64,000 nucleotides of DNA, from positions 4,325,476-4,389,475 of the forward strand of contig NW_021167079.1 in assembly GCF_003711515.1 (NCBI RefSeq). The letters are read 5' to 3'. The position numbers and the translations under genes are program-made. The notes below the pieces were generated by a model. It ran no database searches and was not told where the DNA came from. It saw only the letters and a list, made by a program, of their open reading frames with translations. The stretch is from Sodiomyces alkalinus F11 (lineage: Eukaryota > Ascomycota > Sordariomycetes > Glomerellales > Plectosphaerellaceae). Positions 8,101 to 42,450 of the stretch are shown here, one piece after another (within the stretch, counting starts at the first letter, position 1; each line of letters starts with the position of its first letter).

Positions 8101-8149
8101 ACGAATATACTCTATATCCCGAAGCAGAACCGGACACCGCTGTATAAAG

Positions 8150-17760: not shown

Positions 17761-17964
17761 ATGTTGGAAGAGTGATTGCTGGCTTTTTCGTCGTCTTATT
17801 AAGGTTATTCTGGTTCTTTCTCTTCGTCGGAGGAACTGGATTCTTCAGACGATAATTCTTCTTCAGATAAAGTGACTTCTTCTTCCTTAGACGAAGTAGC
17901 TTCTGCTTCGGGCGTACTGCTTATTAGCTATTAAGGTTAGCTTACCGAACAGGATCGATTAAAA

Positions 17965-18499: not shown

Positions 18500-18504
18500 A
18501 GACT
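18500..18504. repeat. Target-site duplication AGACT (right copy)
   Basis: This is identical to 10,986-10,990 and sits directly after the GTAACA end of the right LTR. The outer integrase resumes here. Confidence 0.93.
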
Positions 18505-19010
18505 ACACGAAGAACTATAAAGCGACCTTAAAATAGTACGAAAAAGAATATAAAAATATATTAACGAAAAAAGGATTAAGGGACTAACCTTCTCGAGGGG
18601 AGACCGGGTCTACCTTATTCGCAAAAATATGAAAACACAGCAACCAAGCGATAAATTAGATTTTAAAAAAATTAGACTATTCGAGATCCTAGAGAACAAA
18701 TCAGATACGAATTATATTCCATTACTACCTCCGATAATAAGAATATATAATTTTCATATTTCACTACTCGAACCAGCATCGAAAAACGCGAAAACCATAA
18801 AAGACACGATTATAGTGGACACCAGCGACGTGTACGAAGCAGAATAAATCCTCGATCACCGACAGACGCTAGATAGCACTAAATATTTTATTAAGTGGAA
18901 AGGCTATGACTACGGCAATAATATATAGAAACCGATAAAGAACCTAATAAATTATAAGTGACTCTTAAAGCAATATCGATAAAACGCTATTAGGACCCAG
19001 AACCGGACGC
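18505..19010 (+). pseudogene. Outer chromovirus integrase C-terminus and chromodomain
   Basis: The reading frame of the outer pol resumes after the inner insertion. The stretch 18,629-18,847 is still open and covers the basic integrase tail; after one RIP stop the frame continues into a chromodomain at about 18,827-18,960 with Lys-Tyr-Phe-Ile-Lys-Trp-Lys-Gly-Tyr. Chromodomains of such elements bind modified histone H3 and steer integration to heterochromatin. CA is preserved and TG is rare, the same one-strand RIP pattern as 5.3-11 kb. Confidence 0.88.
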
Positions 19011-19728
19011 CGCGGTCTACGTAAGATTAATATCCGAAAAATCACCTATACCCTATACTATCACCTGATTCCAATCAATTATATCCACCACACTAGCGGC
19101 CTGCGCAGCTAACACCGCTTCTAACTCGGCCCGATAAGCCTCCTGTTCCTTCTTCTCCATCTTTTTAAGCTCCTCTATATCAGCAAGGTCCTTACGGACT
19201 ATCTCTACCCCCTTCTTTCGCAGTAAGCGACGAGTTCGGCAGAGGCGGGATAAGCGAGCGAGTACTTTATAGAGTATCTCCTCGGTCCACTCCTCTTCTT
19301 ACTCTAGACGCTTTAGCTCCTTATTTATACGACCCGCTAGAGGGTAGAAGTATAAGTGGCGAGGCTAATAGGAGAATAAAAACAAAAACAGGAGCCTACC
19401 AGAAAATATTAGAATTCTAACGCTATCGCAAGAATAACCTAAGCGGAAGCACGCGTGATAGCGGGCGATATCGTTAAGAACAAAGCACGGCACGTTCTTA
19501 GAAGCATAACGGGCGTAAGGAACAACCTTATAACCCTAATCGGCGATAAGGGCGGAAACGGTTAAACGGTTTTTAGTGGAACGGGACTTAGGACAGGACG
19601 ACTTCTGGACACGGTCGGATATAATAGTTAGCTATAAGAAAAGAAAGGAAACCTAGGGAAGCGATAAACCTAGGATAGGCGACCTATTTATACGACCGCT
19701 AGGACAGCGTTTAGAAGAGGGGAGATAA
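19010..19728 (+). other. 3' untranslated stretch and polypurine tract of outer chromovirus
   Basis: No recognisable frame is present. The end (TTAGAAGAGGGGAGATAA) is a purine-rich tract abutting the 3' LTR and is the expected plus-strand priming site. The preceding 60 bp recur almost unchanged, inverted, next to the left LTR of the inner element (about 11,526-11,590). Confidence 0.7.
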
Positions 19729-20244
19729 TATTACGGCCAGCCGCCTAATATAGACTAAACGGGTATACTAGTATATATCCTATAAGGATAGCCTATAGGA
19801 TAACTCAGGAAGTTATATACCAGAATACGTGACTTAGGATATAAAGGTTCCCCTACTTACCCACCATGGACGGACTAGGGTTAGTCACTTCGACGAAGTA
19901 ACTAACAGGTAATCGGTCACGGTAGAATCACCTAGGCATAGCGACTATAGAAGGAATAGTCACTATAACTAAGCAGGTATCACCACTATATATACTAGAG
20001 TATCCTAGGTCTTACTTCTTTTAGAGAATGAGATATCGATTAATCTAAGTCTTTACCTAGACTATTATTCTACGCTTAAACTATACCTTATAAAGAAGAC
20101 GCCGAGTCTTTACGACGTACCACTACACGAGACTCCCGAGTCTAACCCTTACTGCTTATTAGTATTATCCGCCTCTTATTTAAACTAAAACCCTTTTAAC
20201 CTCTATTTATTCGGAATACCTAAGGACTAGAAGCCGTCGAAACA
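19729..20244 (+). repeat. 3' LTR of outer chromovirus
   Basis: The repeat is 516 bp and matches the 5' LTR, but has lost more CA dinucleotides. It ends GAAACA and is followed by the CCCTT duplication at 20,245-20,249. Confidence 0.93.
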
Positions 20245-21138: not shown

Positions 21139-21342
21139 TATTAGATAAAGCGTAGTCAAAATCGTCACAAAATAGGTCAAAATTTGATTAAGGCAATTAT
21201 ATACAATTATAACTGTCTTAGACCGTTAGGGAAACGCTACCACCGTATTTTATATAGTATAGATTCTGTAAGCGTCTACCCGAATTATACTTTTAGTAAT
21301 CCGGCCTATTATATAACCGAAAAGACTATAGTCTATTTGATA
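21139..21342 (-). repeat. Copia LTR, left copy (3' LTR)
   Basis: This 204-bp repeat is matched base for base in length at 26,557-26,760, with RIP-type differences (for example CA versus TA in the middle). Confidence 0.9.
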
Positions 21343-21399
21343 TACCCCCTAATCGCCCTAAACGTTAGTTAGGCGATTAAAGCTATTCGTAATCGGCAG

Positions 21400-24300
21400 A
21401 TAATCTAGCTATATAATCTATTCGCTATAACCGCCCTTAAATTCATCCTCTAGGTCCTCTAAATATTCTATCCGGACTTCCTCTAGCTATTTCTGCTATA
21501 ACCGTTCCCGTATATCCATCACGCCCACCTAGGACCTAAATATCTAAAATTTCTCGCCGCATAGCGCCTTCGTTAATCCGTCTACTACTATTTCCGCGCT
21601 CGTAACGTATATTACGAGTATTTACCCTTATTTCTTTACTTAACGTAACTAGTAGCCGTGGATATTAATATAGCGGAGGCGCGTTATTAACATACTAATC
21701 TCTTAATTAACTAATCGAATCGTTTAGTTATTATCGCATAAGATCCTTAATTCCGGATCATTAAATTCCACTCCTATACTAAGTAATAGGCGTTATATAA
21801 AGATACCCTCTTTTACACCTTATACTAATGCTAATAGCTCTGCCTCCATTATTAATATTATGACCGTAGCCTATTTATTAGCGCGCCACGCTATTATACC
21901 GCTAAATAAGCGTATTATATACGCTTAACTACTCTTTTAATTCAGAGTATTATCGGTAAACGAGGCGTTAGTGTAGATTTCGATAGTATCGCCACCCCCT
22001 AGTTCTAATGTAAACGATTAGCCATTAATTAGATAGAGGATTAGATAATCGGCGGCCTTATAGTAAATAGGCTCTGGCTTAACGTTAAACCGGTATAGCC
22101 TAGATACTATAAACGCGATATTAGGCCGCGATATTACTACTACGTATAGTATAGATCCTATCTTCCGTTAATAGCTTTTAATATTAGTCGAGGTTCTTAA
22201 ATAGGGTAGTAGCTTTATAACCTTAATTAGGTGCGTTAAGCGATAGTTACTGCTATACTCACTATTCGGCTTTAATAGGCGTTCTAACTTAGTAATATAG
22301 TCGCGTTATAATAGCTAGATTTTATGGGCGACGCGGTCGCGAATAACCTTAATACTAAGGAACTACTATAGAGNNNNNNNNNNNNNNNNNNNNNNNNNNN
22401 NNNNNNNNNNNNNNNNNNNNNNNNNNNNNNNNNNNNNNNNNNNNNNNNNNNNNNNNNNNNNNNNNNNNNNNNNNNNNNNNNNNNNNNNNNNNNNNNNNNN
22501 NNNNNNNNNNNNNNNNNNNNNNNNNNNNNNNNNNNNNNNNNNNNNNNNNNNNNNNNNNNNNNNNNNNNNNNNNNNNNNNNNNNNNNNNNNNNNNNNNNNN
22601 NNNNNNNNNNNNNNNNNNNNNNNNNNNNNNNNNNNNNNNNNNNNNNNNNNNNNNNNNNNNNNNNNNNNNNNNNNNNNNNNNNNNNNNNNNNNNGATAGCT
22701 ATTAACGCGCGGAATAACCGTCCGGCTAGTATTACTATATACGTCTCCTTAAGCGAGGATTAATACCGCTAATCTCCTTACACTATAAGCCTTACCTTAT
22801 ATTTATATAGAAATCTATACTTATCGAACTTATATATTATCACCTACATCGAATTAAGAACCTAATATTTATCTACTACGGACGCCGGCACCCGTATCCA
22901 CGACCCTATCTCCTTATAGCTCCGTAGGTAGTCTTCTTATACCTATCGGAATAGGTGGCCGTAAGGGTGTAAGGGTATATCACGAGGGTTCTTCGGAGGA
23001 GGAGGGAGGTCTTTACGGTAGATCTTTACGGCCGCCGGGGTAACCGCCGGAGCACCCGCTAAAATAACCGCCGGGGTTATATTTCCCGAGATAGCCTCCC
23101 GGGATATACTTTTAGTGGCTACCGCCGGGGCCGTGGATTCGTAGGGTATTATTAAACGTCGCTATAACGCTATAGGCGTAGATCTTTTTAACCGTAATTT
23201 AGTTAGCGGAGTCCTATTTAATATATATATATTAGGGACGTAGCGGCTAGCGTTAAACGTAGTAACCTAATAGTCTTTTTTCTAGCTATCTCCTTACCGA
23301 ATTAGTTACGCTCCTTTATTTAATAGGAGCCCTATAGCCGTAGCTATAGGGGTATCGTAGCACTGTATTCCGTTATCTAGAACCCTACGGCCGTAGGGGT
23401 ATCACGGTTTCCTAATATAACGACTACTATTAGCGCTATAACCGATGGCGGGGTTACTAATAGAGTAGAAAGTAATAGTTCGGGCGGATATAGACGGTGA
23501 TTAGGCGCTACACCGGCTAAATCATACTATTTATAACCTAAATCTTATCCTAATTAACTCGAGATAGCCTCCTCCACCCCCTTACGGCCGGGTATTACGG
23601 ACTATAACCTTAACGGTAAAGCTATCGAGGAAAGGGATCCGGGGGCGTTTATCTCCGGATCTAATAATTTAAAATAAGCAGTTATATAAAAGGGGGGGTC
23701 CTTAGCTTATACGTCCGTAAATGGCCGTGAATCTTTAGCCCTCTCCTACTCGATCTAACTAATTAGGTCTTCTAATTACTCCTCGGTTAATTAACGGAGG
23801 TTATCCTTAAAGGTAGCGATATCGCCGTTAAAGAAAGCGCGTTCGTTAAAATCCATATCGCGCGTTCGAATAACACGGTTATAGCGGCGTAGGCCAGGCA
23901 CCTAGATACGGAAAATATGAGTGGAATCGTAGCCGATAAGGTAGCCGATATAGGCGCGAGGAGCGATACGATTTAATAGCTTATTAGCAGCCTTCTAGAC
24001 GTCCTTTATTATCGCGTATGCCTTATAGCTATAAGCTCGAAGGTATAATAAAATTGGCTTCCTTTTAAAGAGGACCTTATAGAGCGTTTTCTAGTCCTTT
24101 TACTGCCTTCGTGGCGTCCGGTTATAGACGTATACGGCCGTCGAAATAGCCTTAGACTATATAAACGGCGGTAGTTTTACGTGGATATTCATCGCACGAC
24201 CTTTTAAGATAACCACGGCAGTAGCGCGTTCGGCACCCCCGTTCTGCGTTTAAGTATCGGTAGTAGATACCTCTAAAAGGATACCCTCGTTACGCAGGAA

Positions 24301-25500
24301 TTAGGTGATATCGTGGGATTAAGTTAGTTCCTTATTAGATTCGAAAACGCGTACCTTATAGCCTGCGGTCTACCTAGGTAAGGAATTCCTGAATTATTAC
24401 GAGGATATCCACTACCAGCTTACTCTTTATAACATAGGTGGCCGTAAAACCACTATAACGGTCGGTGAAAAATATAAACCTCGAGTCCCTATCGGATATT
24501 CGTTTAAAGTCCGTGAAATTAATCGCCTACCGCTCCTCTATATAGGCAGGTGCGGTATAAGGGCGCCTACTAATATACCGTTTAATCTTTATAAGTTCGT
24601 AGGCCTTATAGTCGATAGTTATTAGTCCCTTTATTTTAACCCCCTACGTCTACTCTTCTAGGTGCCTAAGTGGTTTAGGGCCTACGTGCCTTAGCCGTAG
24701 ATACTATAGGATACCCTTTACTATGCTTAGATACCGTATCGTCGATTTATAGACGGCTTTTCGGGTAGTAGAAGAAGAAGAGCCTAGAAAAGCAGCCGTA
24801 GATTAGTTAGAGGACACGTATTTAATAATAGTTTAATCGAAGTAGTAACTTAGCTGGTATAGTATAGATCTATCGGAACGCCGAATATAGTTATTTAGTG
24901 GCTTTTAATCCTACTAGTATCCTCGAAGACGTAGGCGTTAGTTGGAGATTAAATTACAGGTAAAATCCTCGTAGTATACGATATTTAATAGCCTAAAATC
25001 AAGGCCTCCTATTAGTCCGTTTAATCTTATAGTCACGTTACCGTAACCTTTAATAGGCAGGGACGAACTGCCGGCTACTACGTAGTCCCCCTACGTGGCG
25101 GGTATAAAATTAGAAAAACGGGAAAAATTATTAAATATATAAATAGTAGCGCCGGAATTAAAAATAGTAGAGGTTCGAAGAGGGTACCTAGTAGTAGCGG
25201 TTCCTGCTATAAAGCTAGCGGCGTGGGAGACGCCGCTACGGATACTACGGACGCTACTATAGTCGAGTCACGCCTTTTTAGGTTATACTAAGTCCCGGCT
25301 TATATCCTTCTTCACCTTCTTTACGGCGCGTAGTTCTTCTACTTCCGCGCGTAGCGAGGGGTTGTATTTAAGAATCCGTTGGACGGTTATTTTAGTGCTC
25401 TCGAAGGGTATCTAATCATTATATACCGTATCCGGGAATAGATAGAAGTAGGCGTTAATATCGTGGCTAGGTATAGCGTACACGCGGTAGATCAACCCTC
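21400..25500 (-). pseudogene. Copia pol (integrase, RT, RNase H), RIP-broken
   Basis: RNase H lies at about 21,560-22,060 on the minus strand, with Thr-Asn-Ala-Ser-Phe (originally an Asp) and the copia-typical segment ending Glu-Ala-Glu-Leu-Leu-Ala followed later by Asp-Gly-Leu-Thr-Lys-Ala. The end of the reverse transcriptase precedes it at about 22,060-22,370 before the gap. An integrase-like segment with Phe-Phe-Thr-Asp-Arg-Tyr-Ser-Gly-Phe is readable near 24,450. Numerous RIP stops show it is dead. Confidence 0.82.
22374..22693. other. Assembly gap (320 N)
   Basis: These are 320 unknown bases inside the copia element. They fall where the YVDD box of the reverse transcriptase would be expected. 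Confidence 1.
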
Positions 25501-26556
25501 TTCATAGAGTAGATTAGGCGTTTAGAAGAGGAACGGTTAGCCAAAGTAGCTAAAGGTATAGCTATAGATACCGCGGCAGTAGGATTCTTAGCTTTATTCT
25601 TCCTACGGCCGCCCTTTTTACGGGGCTTAGCCGTGGTCTCTAAGGTATTTTTACCCTTTTCGCTTCCGGTGTATAGTGTAGAGAATACTATAGCGCGGTG
25701 ACTACTGCGTTTTCCTTAGTCTTTAAGTCTAGTATTAATATACTTCTAACTAAGGGTGTAAAGGTCTTCGGGTATAACTACCTAGTTATCTATAAAGCGA
25801 CTCTCGGCCTTAGTTTAATCGCGGCCAGTATAGGGGCGTATACCTCTAAAGAAGTCTATAACCTATATATACGTGGCTAGCTTCGAACCGGTATCTTTAT
25901 AGCCTTATAGTAGTAGCTACTACTTATCTAACTACTCCCCGAGCTTTTTAAGGCTATTCGTAGGATGACGAGTATACTCGATATACTCTTCGTGGGTATC
26001 AGTTTAGCAGATAGCCAGGTATTAATCCGTATCGCGTTTAACGGCTTTATACACCTCGCGAGGTATACCTCCTCGTAGTAGTTATCTACGGCTTTAGTCG
26101 ATAGTATTAACCTACTAGGTTAGTATAGCGTTGATCCCCTTTAGGTAGCTGTCGTATTACGCTTATAGGATCTTCTAGCGCGCAATTTCGACGTCGTACG
26201 CCTTCTGGCCGGCGTCCGTAAGGTCAAGATATTACGTAGGGGTACGCCTAGGCGTTATAGAGGGGAAAGAGTCGTAATTCGGTATTATAGGCTCTTCGGG
26301 GGACTAAGTCGGATCGACTAGGCGGAGACACCTCCACACGTTATTATAGGTAGTAACCGATTTGTACAGGCGTCGCCAGAGCTCCTAATCCTTATAGGTT
26401 TTATATGTAATAGGGCTAAGATACGATATCTTAATAGTTATTTTATAGATTAACACGCTATATTAGCGCGGCTAGATAGCTTCTTAAATCGGTAGTAGTA
26501 AAGGTAAAAAGTAGGTAAAAAGGGTATATCTTCACTTAGCAAGTGAGACTTTTAAT

Positions 26557-26760
26557 TATTAGATAAAGCGTAGTCAAAATCGTTACAAAATAGGTCAAAT
26601 TTTAATTAAGGCAATTGTATATAATTATAACTGTCTTAGACCGTTAGGGAAACACTGCCACCGTATTTTATATAGTACAGATTCTGCAAGCGTCTACCCG
26701 GATTATACTTTTGGCAATCCGGTCTATTACGTAACCGAAAAGACTATAGTCTGTTCGATA
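26557..26760 (-). repeat. Copia LTR, right copy (5' LTR)
   Basis: The second 204-bp LTR starts TATTAGATAAAG and ends GTTCGATA. The LINE resumes at 26,761. Confidence 0.9.
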
Positions 26761-28314
26761 AGGTCTAGTAGGCTATATAATAAAAAGTAAAGTAAAAGGC
26801 ACCCGGGGAGGATAGCCTACTAAACGGATTCCTACTCGCCTATAGCTAACTACTCTATAGACGACTAGTATAACTCTTCTCCGCGAGCCTTAAGGCCGTA
26901 TATTTCCCGTAATAATACCGTACCGTAAAAGTAGTAATGCTTAAGAAACTAGGTAAACCGAAGGAAGCTTATATAATAGCCTCGGGGTAATAACCTATAT
27001 TACTCCTTAGCGTAACGGGGAAGGTCCTTAAGAATATAATAGTAAGGAGAATCGCGATTATAGTAAAGGAGTACTAACTCCTCCCCACCGGATAAATAGA
27101 TAATCGTAGATACTATAATACGATAATAGCGGTTAGGGCTATTATAGAGGGAGTATATACCGTATAGGAGCGCGGCGGGGCTATAGCGTAATTAAAGCTT
27201 AATATCTAGGGCGCCTTTAATATAGTACTATACTAAAAACTCCTTAAAGTCCTCGCCTACTACGGCTTCCCGGACAAGGTTATAAAATAGACCTAGTTAT
27301 ACCTTATAGCGTGCACGGTGCGTCTACGCTTCAACGGCGATACGGCGTACTAGGTAGAAATCTAGGCGGGAGTCCTCTAAGGATCCCCCCTCTCCCTGAT
27401 TCTCTTTATACTATTTATTAGGACGCTTTACTAGGAATTAATCCAGATACTACGGGTCACGGTAATCGGCTTTACCGATAACACGAATATTATAGTCTTT
27501 AGACATAATAAGGCCGTACTACGGGCGTACCTTAAACGGGTATAGTAAGTCTACTAAAGCTAGTTACGGAGGAGCGGACTATGATTTAAGCCACGGAAGT
27601 ATAAGCTCCTCTACTTTATAGGAAAATAAGAACCGCTACCGCTCCTACTACGCCTTAAGGGCGTACCGGCGCCGTAAGTTAGAGAGATAGAGGTCCTAAG
27701 GGTTATCCTCGACTAGAAGCCTATATTCCGTCCTTATATTAGGAAACTTAAAGCTAAACTCTTTACTTAGAAAGACGCCTTTACGCGCCTCATAGCGTTA
27801 GTATAGGGCTACTATATCGGGGATACGCGTAAACTATACTAAATAATAGTCCAGAGCGCTATACTATACGCGGCCCCGGCTTTTTACACGATAACGAGAA
27901 AAGGGGAGAAGCCGAGCGGAGTTCTTAAAGGACTAGCTAGTAAGTAAGTATAATACTTATATATCGTTACTAGTGTGTATTAGGCTACTACTATAAAATT
28001 AGTTAAGATAAAGGCGGGGGTCCCCCCCCTTAACTTATACTATAACGCCCTAACCGTATAAGCGGTGCTACGGGTAAAGGATACCTAGATAGAGTAAGCG
28101 ATACTTTAGGTATAATAAGTAGCCGAAACGGCTATATAGCGTAGAAGACGCGGGGGAGGGGTTAGGCCTTACCTAAGGTCCTAAGGGGTATAAAAGTAAG
28201 AGGTCGAGTCCTAGCTCCTTGGGAGGGAACTAGCCTAACGCCTTTAAGAGGAATAGGCATACCGGTAAAAGCGTACCTTACTACGCTAATATAATAGCGT
28301 GGCCATAGTATAGA
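26761..28314 (+). pseudogene. Tad-like LINE, third segment (reverse transcriptase)
   Basis: The plus strand reads as a non-LTR reverse transcriptase: Pro-Ile-Leu-Leu-Leu-Ser near 27,000, Gly-Ser-Pro-Leu-Ser near 27,385, and the catalytic box Phe-Thr-Asp-Asn at 27,471-27,482. The fourth residue should be Asp; GAC became AAC by a TG to TA change. The downstream part (27,800-28,314) should hold the RNase H region. The segment is interrupted at 28,315 by the large gypsy element and continues at 42,057. Confidence 0.85.
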
Positions 28315-28679
28315 TACTATAACTGGATAAAGACGTAGTGGCACCAGATCGTCAAGACAAAGATCAGACAAAGAGGTCAGTCCAGCGAAACCACGATATA
28401 TAACCAAAACATAACCAATACCGCTATAACCTTTAGCGAAGAAGTAGATCGGTAGTCACTATTCTGATCAGGGTAACGTAAGTTAAACTGGAAAGATACC
28501 TTAAACGTAGAATAAGTAATTATAAAAGAGGATAATTATTAAATAATAATCCCTTAATAGGGACGTCCGGCGCCTATCCTTAATATATATATATAGAAGG
28601 TAGACCCCGTAGCCTTAAAAGGGGGGTTATATAACCACCTACTAAACCACTCTAAAGCCGTATCTACGCGGTTATAATA
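28315..28679 (-). repeat. LTR of large gypsy, left copy (3' LTR)
   Basis: About 365 bp, repeated at 41,694-42,056 with mainly C/T and G/A differences. The left copy retains CA at some sites (for example around 28,340-28,400) where the right copy has TA, and the right copy is better preserved near its end. Confidence 0.92.
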
Positions 28680-29100
28680 GGGCCCTAGTTATCTCGATTA
28701 CGCCCTTATAGCGTAGATAACTCCTAAAAATAAGTAGATATAAGTAAATAAACTAAGTAAAGAGCTATTATATACCCTTATTCCTTTAACTACCCCGTCC
28801 TCCACATATACCTGATTAAGGATCCTCTTAGTTTTAGTTCCTCTGTATATACTATTCCCTCACTATCTTCACCGACTATTTCCTCGAGATATCTCTTATC
28901 TAATCCTCTATATATACCCCTATTTACGCTTTCGTAAGGTTTTTCCTCCGACTATATAGTTAGGCTTATTAGCTTTCCTGGCCTTTTAATTAGCGGTAGC
29001 CTTATCTGCCTTCTATTTAATCCCCGCGTTATAACGAAGCTATCCTTCCTAAGGTATAGCCCGAGGCGGCGGTAGATATAGCGCGCTATTAGCTACTACG

Positions 29101-30774
29101 TCACGGAGGCCTACTCGGTATAGGTTATTAAAGGACTTAATCTATTCTTCCTTAGTGTATAGGCTTAGCCTACTAGAACTAATGCACTTAGCTAAAGGCC
29201 GTATATCTACGAGTCTATAGTAAAGCAGGTAATAAGATATCTCCGTGCCCTTAGCCTAGTACTTCGCCTCCTTTTCCTATTTATCTTAGATATCGTAACT
29301 CCTCTTCTTCGAAAGCAGTAGAGGGTTTAGATGCCTTTAGAGTCTTAGGCGTCTTAGATATCTTCGGTATCTTTAGGGGGGGCGTTTTCTTAATAGCCGG
29401 CGGCGTTTACTTCACGGCTTTCTTACTCTTAGGTGTCTAGAGCTTAAGACTACTAAGACCTGCATCGTCGATATTACTACTATTATCGGATAATACTAGG
29501 GGGTCCTAGAAACTCTGACCGGACGTGTTAGTAAGGTCTATAATCTCGGGATTAGGGGAACCAGTAAAGTTAATAGACTCTTCCTTGATTTTAGGCGTCT
29601 TAGGAGTCTTAGAACCCTTAGGCGGGTTAACCGGTATCTATTTCTTAGTCTTATTAATAGGCTAGAATCTAGTCGTTTTAGGGGCCTTAGGAGGCGGCGT
29701 CGCGGGCTTTATAGCTAGTTCTATATAGTGACCAAAGCCAAAGAGTTTACTAATATAAATCACCTAGCCTTTTTTAATATACCGAGTATATTCCCCTATA
29801 TTATTCCCGTAACAGCGACCTTAAGTAAACCTATAAATCTTAGTACTTTAAGGGAATAGGTATCCCTCTTAGACTAAAGCTCTAATCTATTCTATAATAA
29901 AAGGACTATATAAGTAACCGTTTAGCTATATAGGGCTAGAGATAATATAGAAATTTTTAGCTATACTATTAACGGCTTTTTTAGGAGCTCTAATAGAAAT
30001 TATCCACTATATCGTAAGATAGGCGACTTCGAGGAGGTATTATTCACCTTTACCGTTAGACTATATACTATTATACCTATATATAACTTAAGTCTCCTAG
30101 TCGATAATTAGACTAACGAAATAGTTACCGTCGATATAGCAGATTATAGGGATAAAGCGGCTGGTTTTAGTATATTACCGCGCCTTATCGGAGAGAGTTA
30201 TAAACTCCGCCTTACCCTTAGTATCTATTCCCTAGCACGGAATCTTATTAAAAAATACCGTAGGCCTTAAATCCCCTTACCTACGGCTAATTACCGCACT
30301 TATTACTTTTTCTACAGTGCTTTTCTCTTACCACTTATCGGCTTTAATATCTTTACGTAGCCGGTAGGCTAATATTAAGATAGAACGGACCTTAAGATAT
30401 CCTTCGCTATATAAGATTATTAGAGGCGATTATAATACGGCGAGCCCTACGGCCTCTACGTTTAACCCGTCGTTCTTATTCTTATCCAGGAGTCCCTAAA
30501 CTATCTACTAGCTATCCTTCGAGATAGCTTTAAACCTAATATAAGGGGTATCGTTATCTACGGCCTTAAAGAGGCGGTGCGGTAAACCACTTACTAGGAA
30601 CGCCTACCTACTCTTCTTAGGGTTATACTCCTTACGGGGCCTAGTACTCGACTCGATAGCGGTCTATCCCTTAGGCTAAATGCCCTTATTTAGGTCTAAG
30701 CCTTCAGGGACGGTAGCCTAGTAGTCTATAGAGTTATTAGCGGCTATAGCATTAATATTCGTAGGATTTAGTAT
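29101..30774 (-). pseudogene. Ulp1/SENP-like (C48) cysteine protease ORF inside the gypsy element
   Basis: One minus-strand frame of about 557 codons runs without frameshift; internal stops are TAG/TAA of RIP type and the first TGA is at 29,101. The middle part fits the Ulp1/SENP fold by motif. The His position (30,121-30,123, now Tyr) is followed by Phe-Val-Ser-Leu-Ile-Ile-Asp. An Asp position (30,070-30,072, now Asn) lies 17 residues on, a Gln (29,926-29,928, now TAG) 48 residues further, and a Cys (29,908-29,910, now Tyr) 6 residues after that. Yeast Ulp1 and human SENP1 have nearly the same spacing. Each change is a RIP-type transition. The C-terminal part is Lys-Thr-Pro-rich and contains Ile-Ile-Asp-Leu-Thr at about 29,535-29,550, like a SUMO-interacting motif. 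The start is uncertain (an ATA in place of ATG at 30,774). These enzymes normally cleave SUMO or its precursor; a role here is inference. Confidence 0.68.
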
Positions 30775-31162
30775 CTACAGTTACTTACGTTACCCTGATT
30801 AGGGTTTTTAGTAATAATTCCTTATAAAAAAAAGAGAAAAAGAGAAGAAGGGATATTTGGGGGGGAAACGGGGAGATCGAAATAACGGAAAAGGGGTAAA
30901 ATATAATAGGGAAGAATAGGTAAGCCTAAGTCTATAAGGAAATATCGAAGGGGGGAGATTAGGATTAAGGCCGAGGAGGGTTCTATTTATCCTCCGAGGA
31001 CCTCTTCTAAAGGCTCTTCCCTTTAAGTAGGAGTCCTTAGCTTATAACTATAGCTCAAACGGTCTTTTAGTCGTTAAAGGAGGTTATTTCCTAAGTCGTG
31101 ATAAAGATAGCCTTTATAAAATCGGAAAGAAGGTGCTAAATTAGGAAATCAACGTTAGAAAC

Positions 31163-31210
31163 GCTTACTATAATTAGCTAACTAGCTTCGGCGCTTACTA
31201 TAATTAGCTA
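31163..31210. repeat. 18-bp direct repeat, two copies
   Basis: GCTTACTATAATTAGCTA occurs at 31,163-31,180 and again at 31,193-31,210, 30 bp apart. It lies in the 750-bp spacer between the minus-strand Ulp1-like frame and the plus-strand frame that starts at 31,538. Confidence 0.8.
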
Positions 31211-31537
31211 GTAAATATCTAATAAGACTCTTCGTTTATTATTAGGTAGTAGGCGGAGTCGCGATTCTATAATAAAGGAAAATAAAAGGAGGTAGCTATA
31301 AATAGCTATAAAGATAGGTCGAATAGTCGTAATTACTTCGTTAGAGACGCCTCCCTTAACTTATAAAAGCTATAAGCCGCTTAGTTAATATCTCTGCTTA
31401 TCTATCTCTTAAATATAAAAGATATAGGATCCCCGGCTCTTCGTTCCTCTTCTTCTAAGCAATATCACCACTTCTATAGTTATCTTTACCGATAGCACTA
31501 TTACTATAATAACTTCCTAACTTCTCGAATACACACT

Positions 31538-32246
31538 ATGGCTTCTAAGTATATAATCAGGGTATTAAACGAAGCGGAACCGTATAAACGTAAGAAGGCC
31601 GTTAGCAGACAGGAGTCCGTTAAGCCTAATAATAGATCGGGTTAATAATAAGATCACGTATCTATTCTATAAGTACGTCTCCCTGCCGTAGAATCCACGC
31701 TTCCCCGACTACGCTAACTATCTATTCTATAAGTCTGCTTATATATTCCGAGATAAGGGCCTCCGTAAGGAGTTTTAGTAGGCTAAGTATAAGATTAGCT
31801 GGCCCGATAGTGATTACCCCGGCTTTAAATACTATAATCCCCTCCCTAAGGATAACTTAGTACTACCGTAGTTTTTCTATAATAATAAACGATACCCGAT
31901 TTAATCCCCTCGGACTAGCGTTTTCCTAGTTAATATAACCGCTATAGACTATAAGATTACTCGTTAGATACGCTAGGCCTATAGTAGGAAGACCTCTAAG
32001 GCTCACGATAGCTTACTTAGTCTTATCCTAGTGCTCTTAGCTCGGTATAGGAAGGAGGTAGATAGGTATTATAATATTATCTGTAAGGCTAAGGAGGTAC
32101 TTAACCGGGAGGAAATAGTTATCTACTAGACTATTCTGCTTCCTAAAGGGGCTTAGGTCTAGCGCCGGGTCTCTAAAAAGTACGGGCCTGAGGAAGGTAA
32201 CTATAAAAGCGACCCTAACCCAGAAACTAAGTTATTTACTTAATAG
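31538..32246 (+). pseudogene. Unidentified plus-strand ORF inside the gypsy element
   Basis: An ATG at 31,538 opens a frame of about 35 codons. A coherent protein then continues in another frame from about 31,640 to 32,243, with TAG/TAA stops of RIP type. It is rich in Lys, Tyr and Pro, for example Arg-Phe-Pro-Asp-Tyr-Ala-Asn-Tyr and Ile-Ser-Trp-Pro-Asp-Ser-Asp-Tyr. The frame change near 31,640 may be a small deletion or an intron. The 100 bp upstream are pyrimidine-rich with TATAAAA-like sequence, resembling a promoter and leader. It runs against the element's gag-pol. I do not recognise the family; it could be an antisense accessory gene, a captured host gene or another buried element. Confidence 0.45.
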
Positions 32247-33687
32247 GGTGCTTTATAATCAGGGGAATAGGTAGTAATGATAGGTACGCGGTTTATAGGG
32301 TGGCTTATAGGGAAGGGAATTAGATAGTTAATTATCTAAATAATATAACTCTAATAAATAAACGGGATTTCTATAAAGTAACGATCCCTAGTGCTTAGGG
32401 TATTACTCTTTTCGCGAGAACTTTATAATAGGTCTAATTAGGGGAATAGGTAGTAAGGTTAGGGGGAAAAAAAGGTATAAAAGGAGGTCTTCTTCGTGGC
32501 TTATCTTCTTCTCTTTTTCCTTCTCTTTATAATAATCCGTTTTCTACTCCACACGAGTAGACTCCACGGGCCTATTTACCGACAAAGCCCTTATAAGAAG
32601 AATAAGATTTATAGGTAGCGGCCGGTAGTCGCTTAATCAGGCTAATAAAACTAGGGAATCCCCGGGTTTTCCGGTTTTTATTATTATTACTGCCGTCGTC
32701 GTTATAATATTATATTTTTCTTTATTAGGGGTTTTTCTGGCGGGGCTCTTAACGCCGTTAACTTAGTGTCTTGAACTTACTCTTCTAATGATAGGTATAG
32801 TGTTAGTCTTTTCTTTCCGGACGAGGAACTTACGTATAGTAGGCTTAAGGGTAGTATATATAGGTGTGGTTAGGGGAATAGGGGTATAATATTAGTTATA
32901 GGGAGAGCGATTAGTAATAGAGATCAGGAAAAGGAGCTTTAAGTAGTGGGAAGGGGGTGGCTCTTATACTTCTGAAATCGGCCTTTAAGATTAACGTAAT
33001 AACCTAATAAGTTATTAGTACTAGGGTTAGTAAAGGAGGGATTTACGGTTTATAGCTTATAGCCTTTAACGGTATTTCTCTCGATTATATTATACCCTTA
33101 GTAACCGTCCCTATACTAGTTATTCCCGACTATAACTCCCTTCCGCAGAATAGGTAGCTTATATTAAACCAGGTGTAATTTAGCTTAGATCCGATAAATT
33201 ATACGGTGATTAGGGGAATAAAAGTAAAGAATTCAAGATTATAATAAAAGAAACCTATACTTATTATAGAAAAGAGAGTATATAGTGGTATATCTCTATA
33301 ACGTCCACGTAGTTAGGTTTACTTATAAATATAATAAATAATAAATATAGGGAAAAGTCTTCTAATCAGGGGAAATAAGTCTAAACAGGTTTATAGTATC
33401 TTTAATTAGGGTAATAAAGGTAAAAGTTTAAAAAAGAAATGGACTAGGGTAGTAGTTAAGAAGATTATTTATAGGTTTACGCCTTTTATACTAGCGTATA
33501 TCACGACTCCAGGTGGATAAAAGACTTAGCTTTATTTACCCTCGGCCTTAAGACTGCACGCTAGCCTCTTAGCGAGTGCAGGCTTTAAAAATAAAGGAAA
33601 TCAGGGAAAATAATAATAAGGAATAAAATATAGCTCGCTAGTATAATCCTTATACTTACTTAGGTTAAAATCTAGGCACTATAGAAT

Positions 33688-36600
33688 CTATACTTCGACG
33701 GTACTAGACTCCCTTACCTTTTTTAACTCTTCTTCCAGCTTCTTATTATACTCCCCTAATAACTCTCTTAGTCTCTCGGAGCGGCGTAAAATATCGTTAA
33801 TAGTGTGATTAGGGGAACTAATGTTATCCTCGGCCCTAGTATCTTCCTTAGGGTCCTCGCCAGGTAAAAAGGGTGCTTCGGTGACTTTCTCGGTAATAAG
33901 CGCTCCTCGGGCAGGGTACGTAATCTTAAGCTCTTCGCTATAGTCCCGTTTAAGCATAGTCTAGTCCTTAGACTCCTAATACCTATTATCGTTTTAGATA
34001 AACTCCTTTAGGCGGTTAGCGGTAAAAGTAATCCCTTTTAGTTCTTCCCTAGTAAGAGTCTTAAGGATAAAGGACTTATTATCGTGATTAGCCTTCCGGA
34101 TATAATATAGGCCGTTTTAGCGGTAGTCGAGCTTAGCCTTACGGCTTATATCTATAGCTTTCTTAGTATCGTGAACCAGTATAAAATCCTTAACTTATAG
34201 CCTTTACTTACGGAGTACCCGAGTATAGCTAGCGTTAATATAGGCTATCCGTCGCCCTCGTTATTGAGTAATTATAGTAACGGTAGCACATTAGTTAGTA
34301 TTAAGCTAGGTAAAAGCCCTTAACCGAAGTATTATCTTATCCTTAGGGGTTTTAACACGGCCCTAGTCTAGTACTCTCTAAGTTAGGCAGGTCGTTTTAA
34401 TCGGGGTAATAGCCTTATAGCTATATAGAAGGAAGAAAGGGGTACGGGTAGTAGAAGCTCTTACCGTTATACGGTTAGCGAAGAGGATTATGGGGAGGAT
34501 CTTATAAAGGGCTTTAGGGTAAAGCTTCGACTAGATAGATAGACCGTGGGTAATAGCCTTATACCTAACCTTATTAAGGCTATTAGCGCGGGGGTAGTAG
34601 GCCGAGGCGAGCTTTCGAGTAGTCCTATAGCGGCGGTTTAGCTCGATTATATAACCCTTATTCTCTAGACCTCTATCTATAAGGAGGATTATATAAAGCC
34701 TATACCTATAGATTATATCATCCTATAGAAATAAGGTAATAGCCTTAGACGTATTCTTCTTTAGTAGTTAGGCCTTAACCTAACCTGTAAATATATAGCG
34801 GGCCTTTATAAGATACCACCCTTAAAGATATTAAACGTCTAGGCTAACCCAGGTAAAAGAGAGGGCGGTTTCGGGCAGGCTTATTACGATTAGGGGGTCC
34901 TCTTAGGAACGGCTATAGCGGGCCTAGTATTTAGAATAGGACTCGATAAACTTCTAAACGTTCTTATAGATACTATCCTAGAAGTAGTTAGCGGCGAGGC
35001 GATAGTAAATACCCTGCCTTCCTCGGTATCCGGATTCGTTATAGGTTCTCCTAATCAGGTTAACCTGGGTATTCTTATCGTTAATCTAACGCTTAGGGGT
35101 CAAATCGGCCTTAGTTACTCCGGTCTATAGCAGTCTATCCTTAAGGAATACACGGGTAGCTCTATCTTTAACTCTACGGGCTTCCCTAGGATCTATTCCT
35201 TTAGGCACGCGAAAGGTCGTTAAAAAGATAGCTATTTATCGGGAAAACTAACTCTAAATAAGGTCCTTATCGAGGATATCGTCGGCTAGGGCAGGGTTAT
35301 CGAATTACTTCTCGGCTTCTATAAGAAAGATTCTATTATCCACGAAGTCGTTTAGGTCTTCTTCGGTATCGTTATTAGTCTAATTAGAGGGTATTCCGGG
35401 TATCCGGGAGAGTCTATCGGCTATAGTGTTCTTAGATCCTTTAATATACTTAATATCGAAGTCGAAGAGCCGGATCCAGGCGAGCTATCGGATGATTAGG
35501 GTATTAGAGAGGTTAGTAGTAGATCCTTTTAACTAGGATAGGAGGGCTTAGGCATCGGTTTTAAGGATAAAGTAAATCCTATAAAGGTAGTTATATAGGC
35601 GCTAAAGGGTCTTTAGAACTCCCCTTAGCTCTAGCTTATTAGTATTATAGATCCTCTTTATAGGAGACTAACGGCCGTTTTCGTATCGTGCTATAGCTCT
35701 TTTATCCTTAACGTACTATCCGAGGATTCTACTCTATTTATCCGTGCTAGCGTCGATGATAACGTAGATAACTCCTACGCCTTCGCTATACTAGATAGTA
35801 ATTAGGATAGGGGCTATAGTAAGGGCTTTCTGGAGGGCGTTTATAGCGTGTTATTAAGGCTCCTCCTACCTAAAGGCAGTATTCTTCCGTAGCAGGTCGG
35901 TTAGGGGTCTAGCGATAATAGCGAATTTATAAATCCAGACTCGGTAAAAGGTAGTAAGACCGAGGAATAAACGAATATTAGAGACCGTATTACACCTTTC
36001 CTACTCCCGGACCTTCGCGATCTTAGCCTACTTAGGGGAACGACCGTTAATACCGTAGACGTAGCCTATAATAGTGGCTGCTTTCTAATACTACTAGCTT
36101 TTAATACCTACCATAATACCTCTAGCTAGCTCTATATTAAAAAGCACTTTATCAATATTAGCGATATACTCGGCTATAAAACGGTAAATTCCTAGTCTAA
36201 TTAGGGTATCCTTATAGGTAGTTATCGGCCCTTTTACTATAATATCGTTAATAAAGGGTCTATAGTATTAGGGGATAAGGTTGTAAAGGATACGGGTTAT
36301 AATACGTATAAACTAGGCTACTAAATTAGTGGCCCCCTAAGGAAGGGTATATATTCTAAAGAGTCTAACGATAGTCGTAAACGTAGTTAGATCTTAAGAC
36401 TCCTTATTAAGGGTAACCTAATTATAGCCGGAAAAGAGGTCTAAGAGGGATATAAGCTTATATATAGCGAAATCCTCGGAGAACTCGTCGGCCCTAGGCA
36501 GTATAAAGGTATCTAAAAGGGTTATTACGTTAATCTTAGTAGCCGAGTTAATAAGCCGTATATTACCGTCCTTCTTCTTAACTAGGAACTAGGGGTTATA

Positions 36601-37250
36601 ATAGGCTACGTGGCTCTCCTCGATTATACCTTTTTTAAGGCGGTCCTTTATTATCTGCACGACTATAGACTCTAGAGCTTTAGGGATAAGGATCCCTTTC
36701 GCCTACCACGCCTTATAAGAAACCGCTCGAATCTTCTATAGAGGGGCTACCCGTTCGTTAAGGCGGCCGTACTTAGTCTAGTCCTACGTAATAGCTATCT
36801 CGCGGTTTAGGAGGACCTTTATTAGGAGCTCCTTTTTCTTACGGGTTAAGTGGTTAACGGTCTTTAGGATAGCATTAAGTCTTTCGGGTATAAGGCGCGA
36901 ACGGGGTGTGATTTTAGAAAACTTCGGTATAATTAGGCTAACGAACCGCTTATCTTCTAGCTCCTAGTCTTCCTCCTTAATTTCTGCGAGGATATTCTTC
37001 TTCTAGTAAGAGTCTTTATCGGGGACACTTTTATTAGACGGAACGTCGTTAAGAGGGTAAACCTTAAGAGCCTTAGGCTTTTATATAGTAAAAACGCCTT
37101 CGGGATTAAGGGGATAGTATACTTTTTTAATAAGATCCTAGGACTTCCTTCTTTTCGGTTATTATAGCCTCCTCGTCGTAACCACAGCTATACTAATAAT
37201 ACTATCCTCCTCTTTCTTTAAAGCCTCGAGCGTTTTTATCTAGGAATTAT
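33688..37250 (-). pseudogene. Large gypsy pol: RT, RNase H, integrase and coiled-coil tail
   Basis: On the minus strand the reverse transcriptase is readable at about 35,900-36,700. Its catalytic Phe-Ile-Asp-Asp box now reads Phe-Ile-Asn-Asp at 36,244-36,255 by a TG to TA change. RNase H follows at about 35,400-35,800, and an integrase at about 34,200-35,100. The protein ends in a charged, probably coiled-coil tail; the last 89 codons (33,688-33,957) are still open. RIP stops occur throughout. The sequence is clearly diverged from the two chromoviruses and has no chromodomain that I can see. Confidence 0.82.
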
Positions 37251-40200
37251 CCCACGTTATCCGGTTCTTTCGAAAATATAAGACTAAAAGGCTATTAGGG
37301 TAATTAGGCTAATAGTAGTATAGAAAAGTCGAAAAAGATAAGTAGTTAGTGTGAATTAGTTATTATTATATAGTCGTAGTTATTAAGTAAGGAGCCTCCG
37401 CGATACACCTTTTATATCCTCGGCCCTAATTTCGTGGTATCGCCCTTAAGGCTATATAAATTCTCTCCGTTAGGGGCTTTACCTCCTCCGTAAACAGGAA
37501 GGCTACTAAAGTAGTAGCGTCCTCGTTATCTAAATAAAAGAAAATATCGTTATCGCTCTTCTTCTTCTTCTCCTTCTCCTCCCTCGCCTCCTCCTTCTTT
37601 TTCGCCCCCTAATCGGGCGAACTATTAGTCTTATCGTTACTCGATATTAAGGTAGCGGCCCCGGACTAACTATAAGGGACGCTATCCTCCCCCTACTATC
37701 CGATACTTAGATCGATTAAATCCTTTTCCTCTTAACGCTTCTCCTCCTCTTTAAACTTAGGCTAGCTTTATCTATAAGGGCGGTCGTTAACCTATTCTTT
37801 ACTAGCGATAAAGACGATAATACGGGCGTCCTTATAGGCGAAGTCTATATCGATCTATCTATCCGTATAAGTAAAAAAAAGCGTGACTATTAAGTAAGAA
37901 TAGCAGGCTAAAAAGTATCCTAGGCCTTATTCCCTTAATTACTATAAAATAGACTTTCCCGTGCTAGTCCCCGACCTAGAGGTACTCTTTTAGATATCCT
38001 ACGTAGTTTACCCTATCCACGTCGTTAATCCCCTTAATCGCGATATTACTCTTACCGATACAGCCCCGTAGTCCTAGCTTCTCTATAAGGTCTAGCCGGA
38101 TAGTATTAAAGACGGCTCCTATATTAATAACTACGTAAAAACAGTCCTTTATAGGGTAATCCTTAGCTATTTACTTAGTTAGGCTAACCCGTATCGTTAT
38201 ATACTTAGTGTAAATAGTAAGAGGCTTTAGTTTATTAATCGTCGGGGCGGGCGTGATAGATAGGGCACCGTTAAGCGTAGGGGTAGCGGTCGCGGTGTTT
38301 ATAAACTATATAGGATATTCGGGTCCTAGAGGTAAGGAGTCTATAAAAAAGGCCTTTTTAGGGGTTAAGCGGATAACCTTATAAGGCTTTACCTGGCTGC
38401 TAATTAACCTTAGCGTCTCCTTATAGTCCGCGAGGATAGCTTAATTAGTAGAGAGGAGGTAAACTATAAGAACCTTAACCTCTATCTCTAAAAGGTGCTT
38501 TAGACTCTTCTCGCGGACCTTCTATATAACGGCCTCCTAGTTAAATAAGTTAAGGGTATCCTTTTAAGCCGAGGCTCGCGATATAGGCCGAGTAGTAGTT
38601 AAGGTAGTGGTAGATCTAGATATAGGGGTTATTAAATCAGGGGTTAGACCGTTATCTATATCGGTATTGTTAACTATCTCTATAACCCTTTAGGAGCTTC
38701 CTAGAGTCAATAGGGTTTATTAAACGGCCTAATTAGGGGAACTAGCTACTTTTAGCGTGGGTTTACTAATTCTACCGCTCCTAGTAGTGCGAAAAGGGTC
38801 CTAGGGTTTAGTCGAGGTATATTAAGATATAGACGTAGTATATACTCTAGTAGTAATAAAGTTAATAGATCCCGTGACCTTAGTAACCCTTAAGGCTTAA
38901 GTGGCTTAGGTGGCCTAACTACTCTAACCGGTCTACTGCTTCTATACCTGCTTAACTATATACTTAATTATAAGCCTATTAGTCTTATTAGTCTTATAAG
39001 GGAGGGTAGCGAGCTAGAAGGTCTTAATATAAAGGTCTATAAGCTCCTTAAATCGGCTATAAAGCTTAGTAGCTAGCTAATATAGTATAAGGCGTCGGTA
39101 TAGCTAGTACTTATTAACTTATAGCTCGTTCTTTAGACAGGCTGCCTAGGTACCGGTCTAATCTATAACTAAATACGCGGGGAACTCCTACTTAACTAGG
39201 TTATAGGCGCTATCGTGGATTAGGATAGGGAAGTTATCTCTCCGATACCCTTCTTAGCCGTAGTAGTAGTAGCGTGCTAGCGGGGGCTAGCTATTATTCT
39301 AAGCACCTCTCTACTATCCTAGGCGGTTATTATATTACTAGGTCGGGCGGCTATCGATACGCCGGTTAGTATATCTAGGGCGGGGTTCTCCGTAATAGAT
39401 CTCCTTAGTATACTAGGCGTTATTAGGCTAGGAAGCGGCACTATTAGCCTAATTAGGGGTAGCGAAGTGCACTAAAGCAGTTATCGTAGGCTAAGGGGCG
39501 TGCTTAAGGACGGTATAACAGGCGTTCTTTAGATTAGAGTTCGTGGCGAGGAGGGCTTAGACCTTCTCCGTGCCTATCCTCTTAGATAGGGCGAGTACTT
39601 AGGCGGTAATACCCCTAACGCCTTTAGCTCTATTATAGATAAGAGAAATAGTATACTCCTTAAGGAGGTCGGCGAGCTTATCTATATCCGATTAAGAGGC
39701 TATAGACTCCTAGACTATAATAGGCCGCCTTAAGATCGTGGGCTAAAAAGCGGTACTATTAGGCTGATTAGACTTAGCTATACCTAGTATAGCGTCCCTA
39801 TCTATAGGCTTACCCTTTACTTCCTAGATATCCGTAGACTACTCGTGTAGTAGGTCTAAAAGCAGCTTATAGCTCTTAACTATCTTTCTTAAATCGGTGC
39901 CTTAAATCTTAAGCTTATTAGCGATAAATATATAGATATCCTTATATAGAATAGTAAGGACGATACCGTAGAGCTCGGAGTCCTCGATAAAAGTGCCTTA
40001 GACCCGCTTTACCTTAGCCTTCTAGAGAGTGATTTACTATAATAAGTCCCTAACCTAATAAACGCTATTAATCTTATACGTCTTATATTTTACCCGAAGC
40101 TAATAAACCTCGTAAGAGAAGTTAAGTTAGTAGTTAGGATCTAGATAAGAGTACTCTTTAACGAGCTTCTCGATTAGATTAGACTAATTACCTTTAGCGG

Positions 40201-41200: not shown

Positions 41201-41693
41201 ATTTCGCTCCTATACTCGGTATTAGCTTTTTATTAGGTCTGCTAGGGGTTAGTTACCCTAATCCGGGAAAGCTGCTCTTAGCGGTCTTATCTTTTCTTCG
41301 CCGTTATACGAGAATCTGTTTTAATTAATAGTAGGGATTACGAGCCCCTTGTCGAGTCTATTCTATATCCGGAATCTAACTCTATCGCGATCTAATCGGT
41401 TTCTTCTATTTCTATAATTACCACCTCTATAGCGGCGGGTCTTATAATTAAAAGTGTTAATAGTTCTTTAACTCTTACCTAAGTAGTTATTTCTTTTCCT
41501 GATCTTATTAGGGTAAATCTCCCCTTAGTCTTAAAGCATTAAATCCTTCCTCAGTCGTTATCTTTATATTCTTCCTGGGGTTATTAACTAATAGTCCGTT
41601 TAGGAGGGCCGGAACCTCCTTTAAGTGCCTCTATTACTCTAATCAGGGTTAGAACACTTTAGAGATACCGAGTAAATCCGCCTCCGAGCACTA

Positions 41694-42056
41694 TATTATA
41701 ACTGGATAAAGACGTAGTGGCACTAGATCGTTAAGATAAAGATTAGATAAAGAGGTTAGTCTAGCAAAACCACGATATATAATCAAAATATAACTAATAC
41801 CGCTATAACCTTTAGCGAAGAAGTAGATCGGTAGTCACTATTCTAATCAGGGCAATATAAGTTAAACCGGAAAGATACCTTAAACGTAGAATAAGTAATT
41901 ATAAAAGAGGATGATTATTAAATAATAATCCCTCGATAGGGACGTCCGGCGCCTATCCTTAATATATATATAGGGGGTGGACCCCGTAGCCTTAAAAAGG
42001 GGGTCACGTGACCACCTGCCAAACCACTCCAAAGCCGCATCTGCGCGGTTATAATA
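41694..42056 (-). repeat. LTR of large gypsy, right copy (5' LTR)
   Basis: About 363 bp, the partner of 28,315-28,679. Its last 60 bp keep CA, TG and GTG and are hardly RIP-mutated, unlike the left copy. Confidence 0.92.
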
Positions 42057-42450
42057 CCCTAGTTTAATTACGCGGTGCTTAGGAAGTATAAGGGCCTTAT
42101 AAAACTATAGAGTTCTATCCTTACCTAGATTCGAATAGAGAAAATAGGCCTTCGCCACTTCTTTTTTATAAGAGGCGTGCCGGAAGCGGCGATACCGTAT
42201 TACCGGTACGCCGATAAAGGGCCGGAGATAGCGGAATATATCGCGTTATAGTGCTAAGATATATTAGGGGAGATATAAGTGCGCCTCACGGCCGATATAG
42301 GCGCGCGCCTACTAATAAAATAGGACTAGCTCTTAGCGCTCTAGAGTAAGGAGACCGCGGGGAAGGTTGCGAAGTGGTTCCTATAAACCGGGCGCCTCCC
42401 AGACTTCCGATTAGTATAATAATTAAAAGCGGAGGCGTAGTAAAGCCCTT
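42057..42450 (+). pseudogene. Tad-like LINE, fourth segment (ORF2 C-terminus)
   Basis: The ORF2 frame resumes after the gypsy insertion. It reads Ser-Ser-Ile-Leu-Thr-Gln-Ile-Arg (one RIP stop in place of Gln) and then a Cys/His cluster at about 42,195-42,265 of the kind that ends many fungal LINE ORF2 proteins (C-x-CG...ET..H-x4-C, here partly Tyr). This places the large gypsy element inside ORF2 and closes the reconstruction of the LINE. Confidence 0.72.

What the first reader, a model, noticed from the sequence alone, without database searches (positions are those of the whole stretch)
29101..30774. A Ulp1/SENP-like SUMO-protease ORF carried by a giant fungal Ty3/gypsy element
Seen: one uninterrupted minus-strand frame beyond the integrase shows His-(17)-Asp-(48)-Gln-(6)-Cys spacing with matching context (Phe-Val-Ser-Leu-Ile-Ile-Asp after the His; Asn-Gly-Tyr-Leu before the Cys; Pro-Phe two residues after it). 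In human SENP1 the spacing is 17, 47 and 6. The His, Asp and Cys codons each read as the residue RIP would produce (CAT to TAT, GAT to AAT, TGT to TAT). Known: Ulp1-like ORFs are familiar in plant DNA transposons such as Kaonashi-type Mutator-like elements. I know of none in the 3' position of a fungal LTR retrotransposon. Inference: the element may have used deSUMOylation to counter host silencing or guide integration.
Basis: partly seen in the sequence, partly recalled or inferred. Interest (0 to 1): 0.88.

Follow-up and report, generated by a model that had tools for sequence, protein, structure and literature searches.

The report
Ulp1-like protease gene inside fungal retrotransposon
A large, now heavily mutated LTR retrotransposon, probably of a fungus, carried besides its usual genes an extra gene for a protease related to the enzymes that strip SUMO tags from proteins, and it carried that gene in two very different versions.

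Summary
Residues and spacing are as stated, but the frame has 40 stops in 558 codons, and a RIP-tolerant form of the spacing motif occurs about once per 1,612 residues in such DNA. The rest of the genome decides. The 13.75-kb Ty3/gypsy-like element (28314-42064, minus strand) has many copies; 41 of 53 pol matches have this third ORF (ORF3) downstream, and 35 of 40 LTR matches lie within 1.8 kb 3' of one. About half are a second type, some 43% identical in protein; one copy of it keeps His-17-Asp-48-stop-6-Cys. For 2 of 5 type-2 pieces Pfam's only match is Peptidase_C48, below cut-off. A model of seven cellular C48 enzymes ranks that copy first after the host's own C48 loci (E 2.3e-4 among 4,758 segments; 0 of 3,000 shuffles reach it). 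The types share LTRs and the stretch after pol at about 90% DNA identity and part sharply at 32449: an exchangeable cassette. Most likely a deSUMOylase easing host repression; that function is inferred. All copies examined are RIP-damaged.

The parts
28314..28690 (-). 3' LTR
   Evidence: 377-bp direct repeat of 41693-42064, 89.9% identical; 33 transitions, 0 transversions in 372 aligned bases
41693..42064 (-). 5' LTR
   Evidence: LTR ends approximate; no target-site duplication recognised for this copy
28797..30774 (-). ORF3 (RIP-damaged), about 656 codons in other copies, same strand as pol; frameshift between 29393 and 29260; the match ends about 107 bp before the 3' LTR; true start codon not determined
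   Evidence: tblastn of another copy's frame; 13-copy protein alignment A1
29908..30123 (-). C48 core: places of His (codon from 30123), Asp (30072), Gln (29928), Cys (29910), read as Tyr, Asn, stop, Tyr
   Evidence: the second ORF3 type keeps His, Asp and Cys at the same spacing in L045
29476..29550 (-). two SUMO-interaction-like strings, EIIDLT and PLVLSD, in the linker after the protease core
   Evidence: coordinates; IIDLT in 8 of 13 type-1 copies; not seen in the two type-2 linkers held (L045, L008); motif recalled, weak
33688..36582 (-). pol: RT, RNase H, integrase zinc finger, GPY/F-like stretch; frame followed to about 33,690 (end inferred)
   Evidence: Pfam RVT_1 36582-36238 (E 0.14), RT_RNaseH_2 from 35868 (7.1e-7), RT_RNaseH to 35473 (1.8e-6), Integrase_H2C2 35076-34938 (0.0017); GPY/F-like stretch 34131-34000 by eye, motif recalled
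38099..38134 (-). aspartic protease motif VVI[D/N][T/I]GA
   Evidence: 17 copies read: Asp in 4 of 17, Thr in 1 of 17; assigned by eye, no Pfam match
28691..32449 (-). exchangeable 3' cassette; left edge at 32449, right edge only roughly known
   Evidence: 13 of 67 DNA matches stop at query 1551-1553 while type-1 copies read on; right side from one type-2 piece
31628..31629 (.). place where this copy lacks about 514 bp present in the type-1 copies compared
   Evidence: match break at element position 10736/10737 and query 2372/2373

Best explanation
ORF3 is an accessory gene of a Ty3/gypsy-like LTR retrotransposon. It encoded a cysteine protease of the Ulp1 (C48) kind, with an N-terminal region of about 200 residues, the protease core, a Lys/Pro-rich linker and a conserved C-terminal region of about 170 residues. 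Most likely it removed SUMO from host proteins that hold down the element's transcription or integration, in trans, while the element's own aspartic protease matured Gag and Pol. The gene travelled as a 3' cassette that swapped between two old versions on one backbone, probably by template switching in reverse transcription. RIP later disabled the copies examined. Shown: gene membership, C48 descent, two versions, the sharp edge, RIP-like damage. Inferred: activity, SUMO specificity, location, target, template switching.
For: Membership: (41 of 53 pol matches; 35 of 40 LTR matches); the 3' flanks of the 16 copies printed differ, so the insertions look independent (by eye). C48 descent: type-2 copy L045 His-17-Asp-48-stop-6-Cys; Pfam lists Peptidase_C48 alone for two type-2 copies read with stops as Q/W (E 0.014 and 0.052 against 24,736 models); a model of seven cellular sequences finds L045 at E 2.3e-4 (3.8e-4 with X at stops) among 4,758 segments, all four catalytic places in register; 0 of 3,000 shuffles reach its score (best 4.3 against 18.1 bits). 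Constraint: in 5 of 5 comparisons between types transversions run third > first > second codon position, e.g. 69/53/87, though a protein-guided alignment leans that way. Own aspartic protease. Precedent: in yeast, mislocalised Ulp1 raises Ty1 RNA and retrotransposition, which the authors ascribe to lower SUMOylation of unidentified factors (PMC8585004, passages); Ulp1-bearing VANDAL elements of plants induce hypomethylation of their relatives (PMC13317346, passages).
Against: No open copy was seen: all 85 rows contain stops, and 113 of 114 rows (the other is a 33-residue fragment). His and Cys are never seen in type 1 (0 of 13). C48 matches stay under Pfam's cut-off (15.7 and 13.8 against 20.7) and appear only in the Q/W reading; the X reading of L045 gave none. 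Of the other type-2 pieces, L047 matched only Cue1_U7BR (E 0.14) and L046 and L008 nothing. Profile-profile comparison with two host enzymes is in register but has probability 0.3% and E 0.21. No solved structure matches the profiles (one search gave one unrelated hit at E 1.1), and the single-sequence fold is useless (pLDDT 33.5). SIM-like strings are in type 1 only. The yeast analogy is indirect: a ulp1 mutant with impaired catalysis raises Ty1 too. The review says the function of the Ulp1 domain in the plant elements is unknown. Nothing shows SUMO rather than NEDD8 or ubiquitin.
Confidence: 0.5

Rival explanations
1. ORF3 protease matured the element's own particle proteins, like the clan CE proteases of adenovirus and African swine fever virus (recalled), rather than acting on SUMO.
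For: It lies in the element on the strand of gag-pol; clan CE holds such enzymes (recalled).
Against: The element carries an aspartic protease motif of its own (D in 4 of 17, T in 1 of 17 copies, by eye). The cellular model that finds it is Ulp/SENP.
Confidence: 0.15
2. It protected the element's own integrase or Gag from SUMO-directed loss, or steered integration through SUMOylated chromatin proteins.
For: Fits a trans-acting deSUMOylase; SIM-like strings in type 1.
Against: Insertion sites were not examined for bias here; SIM-like strings not seen in the two type-2 linkers held.
Confidence: 0.15
3. It is a C48 protease for NEDD8 or ubiquitin, not SUMO.
For: C48 includes such enzymes (recalled); the printed profile alignment paired it with the host Den1-like sequence.
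Against: Nothing decisive either way.
Confidence: 0.12
4. The resemblance is chance: a mutated frame with a lucky motif.
For: The RIP-tolerant spacing motif is common (one per 1,612 residues); type-1 copies have no C48 match; the strict motif has 5 hits, 4 of them in the window outside ORF3; one search is weak.
Against: Type-2 copy L045 keeps the triad and matches C48 alone in Pfam, as does a second type-2 copy; 0 of 3,000 shuffles; about 43% protein identity is kept between types whose DNA hardly matches beyond the edge (at most 66-67% over 245-310 bases in two copies).
Confidence: 0.05

Closest known systems
Kaonashi/KIU (VANDAL, non-TIR MULE DNA transposons of plants; PMC13317346, passages)
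   Same: Transposon-carried Ulp1 domain; KIU-carrying VANDALs induce hypomethylation of related elements
   Different: DNA transposon in plants, not an LTR retrotransposon
Ginger1 DNA transposons (PMC2836005, passages)
   Same: Gypsy-type integrase plus a C-terminal Ulp1 or OTU domain
   Different: DNA transposon with TIRs; the domain is part of the transposase
NeSL/Utopia non-LTR retrotransposons of nematodes (PMC4640811, passages)
   Same: Retrotransposon carrying a Ulp1-like cysteine protease
   Different: Non-LTR; the domain is N-terminal in the element's protein
CryptonF/CryptonS of oomycetes (PMC3212892, passages)
   Same: C48 peptidase carried by a mobile element, in some CryptonS as an additional protein
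   Different: Tyrosine-recombinase elements
Botrytis BcGypsy1 with brtn (PMC8365987, passages)
   Same: Fungal Gypsy element with an additional ORF
   Different: brtn is antisense by the title of a cited paper; no Ulp1 resemblance in the passages seen

Membership tests
Peptidase C48 (Ulp1/SENP, PF02902): window copy and type 1 | Catalytic His, Asp, Cys present | tested here: not met
   13 copies: His 0 of 13, Asp 3 of 13, Cys 0 of 13; window Tyr, Asn, Tyr; so this copy is filed as a damaged relative, not as a working member
Peptidase C48: second type of the same ORF | Catalytic His, Asp, Cys present | tested here: met
   All three together in L045; across the type-2 pieces read His 2 of 4, Asp 3 of 4, Cys 3 of 3
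Peptidase C48 | Spacing His-17-Asp and Gln-6-Cys | tested here: met
   17/48/6 in the window and L045; 17 and 6 in 6 of 6 cellular sequences; the Gln codon itself is a stop
Peptidase C48 | Profile match over the curated cut-off | tested here: not met
   15.7 and 13.8 bits against 20.7 for two type-2 copies; none for type 1; all RIP-damaged
Peptidase C48 | Fold of clan CE | tested here: inconclusive
   Single-sequence model, pLDDT 33.5; no fold search made
Peptidase C48 | SUMO (or NEDD8/ubiquitin) protease activity | not testable with these tools
   needs protein
Ty3/gypsy LTR retrotransposon | Two LTRs round gag-pol | tested here: met
   gag by eye only
Ty3/gypsy LTR retrotransposon | Order RT - RNase H - integrase | tested here: met
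   (RVT_1 itself weak, E 0.14)
Ty3/gypsy LTR retrotransposon | Target-site duplication | tested here: inconclusive
   not recognised in this copy

The most novel reading that the evidence does not exclude
An LTR retrotransposon lineage used a self-encoded deSUMOylase as a counter-defence gene and kept it as a swappable 3' cassette in two deeply diverged versions (about 43% protein identity, on a backbone whose LTRs are about 90% identical in DNA), as expected if this gene, unlike pol, was in an arms race with host silencing.
Probability: 0.25. Interest if true: 0.85.

Novelty: new variant of a known kind. Interest (0 to 1): 0.63.

Why it matters
Ulp1-type proteases are on record in plant and animal DNA transposons, oomycete Cryptons and nematode non-LTR elements. 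Eight searches of the open-access library, whose listings are capped, showed me none as a third ORF of an LTR retrotransposon. If the reading holds, the SUMO pathway is a recurring point where unrelated mobile elements meet host control, and the yeast work on Ulp1 and Ty1 gives a ready assay. The two-version cassette offers a natural comparison of a fast-diverging accessory gene with a constant backbone.

Tried and rejected
Rejected: the window motif as proof by itself. The host's own C48 genes as the source of the signal: L001-L003 are separate open genes and L004 a further C48 match with 4 stops. ORF3 as a nested insertion with its own terminal repeats: its match ends about 107 bp before the element's own LTR, and such LTRs follow both types. 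A codon-position test within type 1 was uninformative: 3 fixed transversions in all. Target-site duplications: not resolved. A piece beside one copy (L030) that I hoped was type-2 upstream DNA gave no match to the type-1 copy compared. PF02902 over the genome at E up to 10 listed 4 places, none in the element copies. In the model search (I saw the 25 best rows per reading) hits at E 0.24-1.9 in the Q/W reading (L019, L023, L020) lie, by their segment positions, upstream of ORF3 and are noise; no type-1 ORF3 core is among those rows. Alignment A1 holds 13 of the 15 single-frame copies among 21 loci searched. No alignment-based structure prediction was made, because the tool's list of allowed sources does not name loci from the genome search or the fetch from genomes. 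Presence in other species could not be tested, and the organism was not identified.

Full report
What is there. The window lies in a 43.4-Mb genome of 22 contigs. That it is a fungus is inferred from the RIP signature; no call names it. CpA+TpG is 22.5 per kb in 28314-42064 against 124.1 in 45001-64000. Two direct repeats, 28314-28690 and 41693-42064, 89.9% identical, differ by 33 transitions and no transversion. Between them, on the minus strand, Pfam finds weak RT, RNase H and an integrase zinc finger in that order; the frame can be followed to about 33,690. A stretch in another frame carries VVI[D/N][T/I]GA at 38134-38099; Asp is seen in 4 of 17 copies read and Thr in 1 of 17, so I read it as the element's own aspartic protease (by eye, Pfam gave nothing).

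Residues and spacing are as described. The frame is not uninterrupted: it has 40 stops in 558 codons and a shift between 29393 and 29260; the matching frame ends near 28797. Taken alone the motif proves nothing: a RIP-tolerant version occurs 434 times in 699,434 six-frame residues, and the strict one 5 times, one of them in the type-2 ORF3 L045. Pfam gives no C48 match for the window copy or for any of the 13 copies of alignment A1.

The family. A DNA search gave 42 places (40 of 74 candidates scored). Of 20 upstream stretches fetched, 14 are co-linear with the window's element over at least 8.4 kb; the others are cut by a contig end, deletions or insertions. The 656-codon frame is in one piece in 15 of 21 loci searched; 13 of these were aligned. 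A protein search finds a second type at about 40-45% identity, and a search from that type (L045) recovers both. Parsing positions, 41 of 53 pol matches (50 of 529 candidates scored) have ORF3 3.2-5.2 kb downstream on the same strand, 20 of type 1 and 21 of type 2; 12 have none within 9 kb. Of the 40 LTR matches (40 of 226 candidates scored) 35 lie within 1.8 kb 3' of an ORF3, 14 type 1 and 21 type 2.

C48 descent. Type-2 copy L045 reads His-17-Asp-48-stop-6-Cys with FVSLILD, VYDSI and ENVYSCG around them. A second type-2 copy keeps His and Asp (its piece ends before the Cys); two more distant ones keep Cys, one of them Asp. In six cellular sequences the spacing is 17, 37-47, 6. Pfam lists one family only, Peptidase_C48, for two type-2 copies, at E 0.014 and 0.052 against 24,736 models, under the curated cut-off and with stops read as Q/W; the X reading of L045 gave none, L047 matched only Cue1_U7BR (E 0.14), and L046 and L008 matched nothing. 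A model from seven cellular C48 sequences, searched without filters against 4,758 segments of all DNA held, puts L045 first after the host C48 loci L001-L004 (E 2.3e-4; 3.8e-4 with X), aligned through His, Asp, the Gln place and Cys. None of 3,000 shuffles reaches its score (1,228 were scored, best 4.3 against 18.1 bits). Weaker or against: profile-profile probability 0.3%, E 0.21, though in register; no PDB chain for the profiles; no usable fold.

Two versions on one backbone. A DNA query across 34000-30775 matches type-1 copies throughout, but 13 of its 67 matches stop at query 1551-1553, that is at window 32449; 10 of these 13 have a type-2 ORF3 match 2.5 kb further on, 3 have none within 9 kb. 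Beyond the edge the only type-2 DNA matches listed are two stretches of 245-310 bases at 66-67%. Before the edge both types match the window at about 87-93%, the LTRs at 89-92%, and pol protein at 72-86% in the 21 type-2 rows and 76-84% in the 19 other type-1 rows. ORF3 protein identity between types is 35-48% in five comparisons, about 43% for L045, with transversions third > first > second in 5 of 5; the C-terminal region is at 51-64%. The simplest cause is recombination of a 3' cassette between old lineages, for which template switching in reverse transcription is the ordinary route (inference). Fast change of the gene itself is possible too, but does not explain the sharp edge.

What it did. 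In yeast, mislocalised Ulp1 raises Ty1 RNA and retrotransposition, and the authors ascribe this to lower SUMOylation of unidentified factors; a catalytically impaired ulp1 mutant does so too, so the analogy is indirect (PMC8585004, passages). Plant elements with a Ulp1-bearing anti-silencing gene induce hypomethylation of their relatives, the part played by the Ulp1 domain being unknown (PMC13317346, passages). By analogy I commit to a trans-acting deSUMOylase that eased host repression, at about even odds. Self-maturation is less likely because the element seems to have its own aspartic protease. Substrate and target are untested.

Novelty. Ulp1-type domains are on record in Ginger1, Utopia/NeSL, Cryptons and plant MULEs. 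Eight library searches showed me no LTR retrotransposon with one. Their listings are capped at 10 to 20 papers, most subscription papers are not held, and I saw listings and passages only. I rate it a new variant of a known kind.

Noticed in passing
window 5286-20244: Nested LTR-like pairs: 5286-5801/19729-20244 (91%) enclose 10991-11523/17965-18497 (93%), with inverted homology of 8781-10977 to 14967-12771 (77%): probably related RIP-damaged elements in opposite orientation.
   Followed up: no
window 21139-26760: A 204-bp direct repeat pair (92%) surrounds a run of N at 22374-22693.
   Followed up: no
window 29476-29550: IIDLT, a SUMO-interaction-like string (motif recalled), in 8 of 13 type-1 copies, and LVLSD/LILSD in 13 of 13, in the linker after the protease core; not in the two type-2 linkers held.
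   Followed up: partly
L001, L002, L003: The host's own C48 genes are open in frame; the Ulp1-like gene L002 has Asn where the five others measured have the catalytic Asp.
   Followed up: no
L008 2-754 and alignment A1 columns 490-663: The C-terminal region of ORF3 is better conserved between types (51-64%) than the rest and matches nothing in Pfam beyond a weak GKAP hit of one copy.
   Followed up: partly
PMC8146201 (passages): Ulp1 protease genes are reported on an accessory chromosome of Parastagonospora nodorum; whether they belong to mobile elements was not examined.
   Followed up: no
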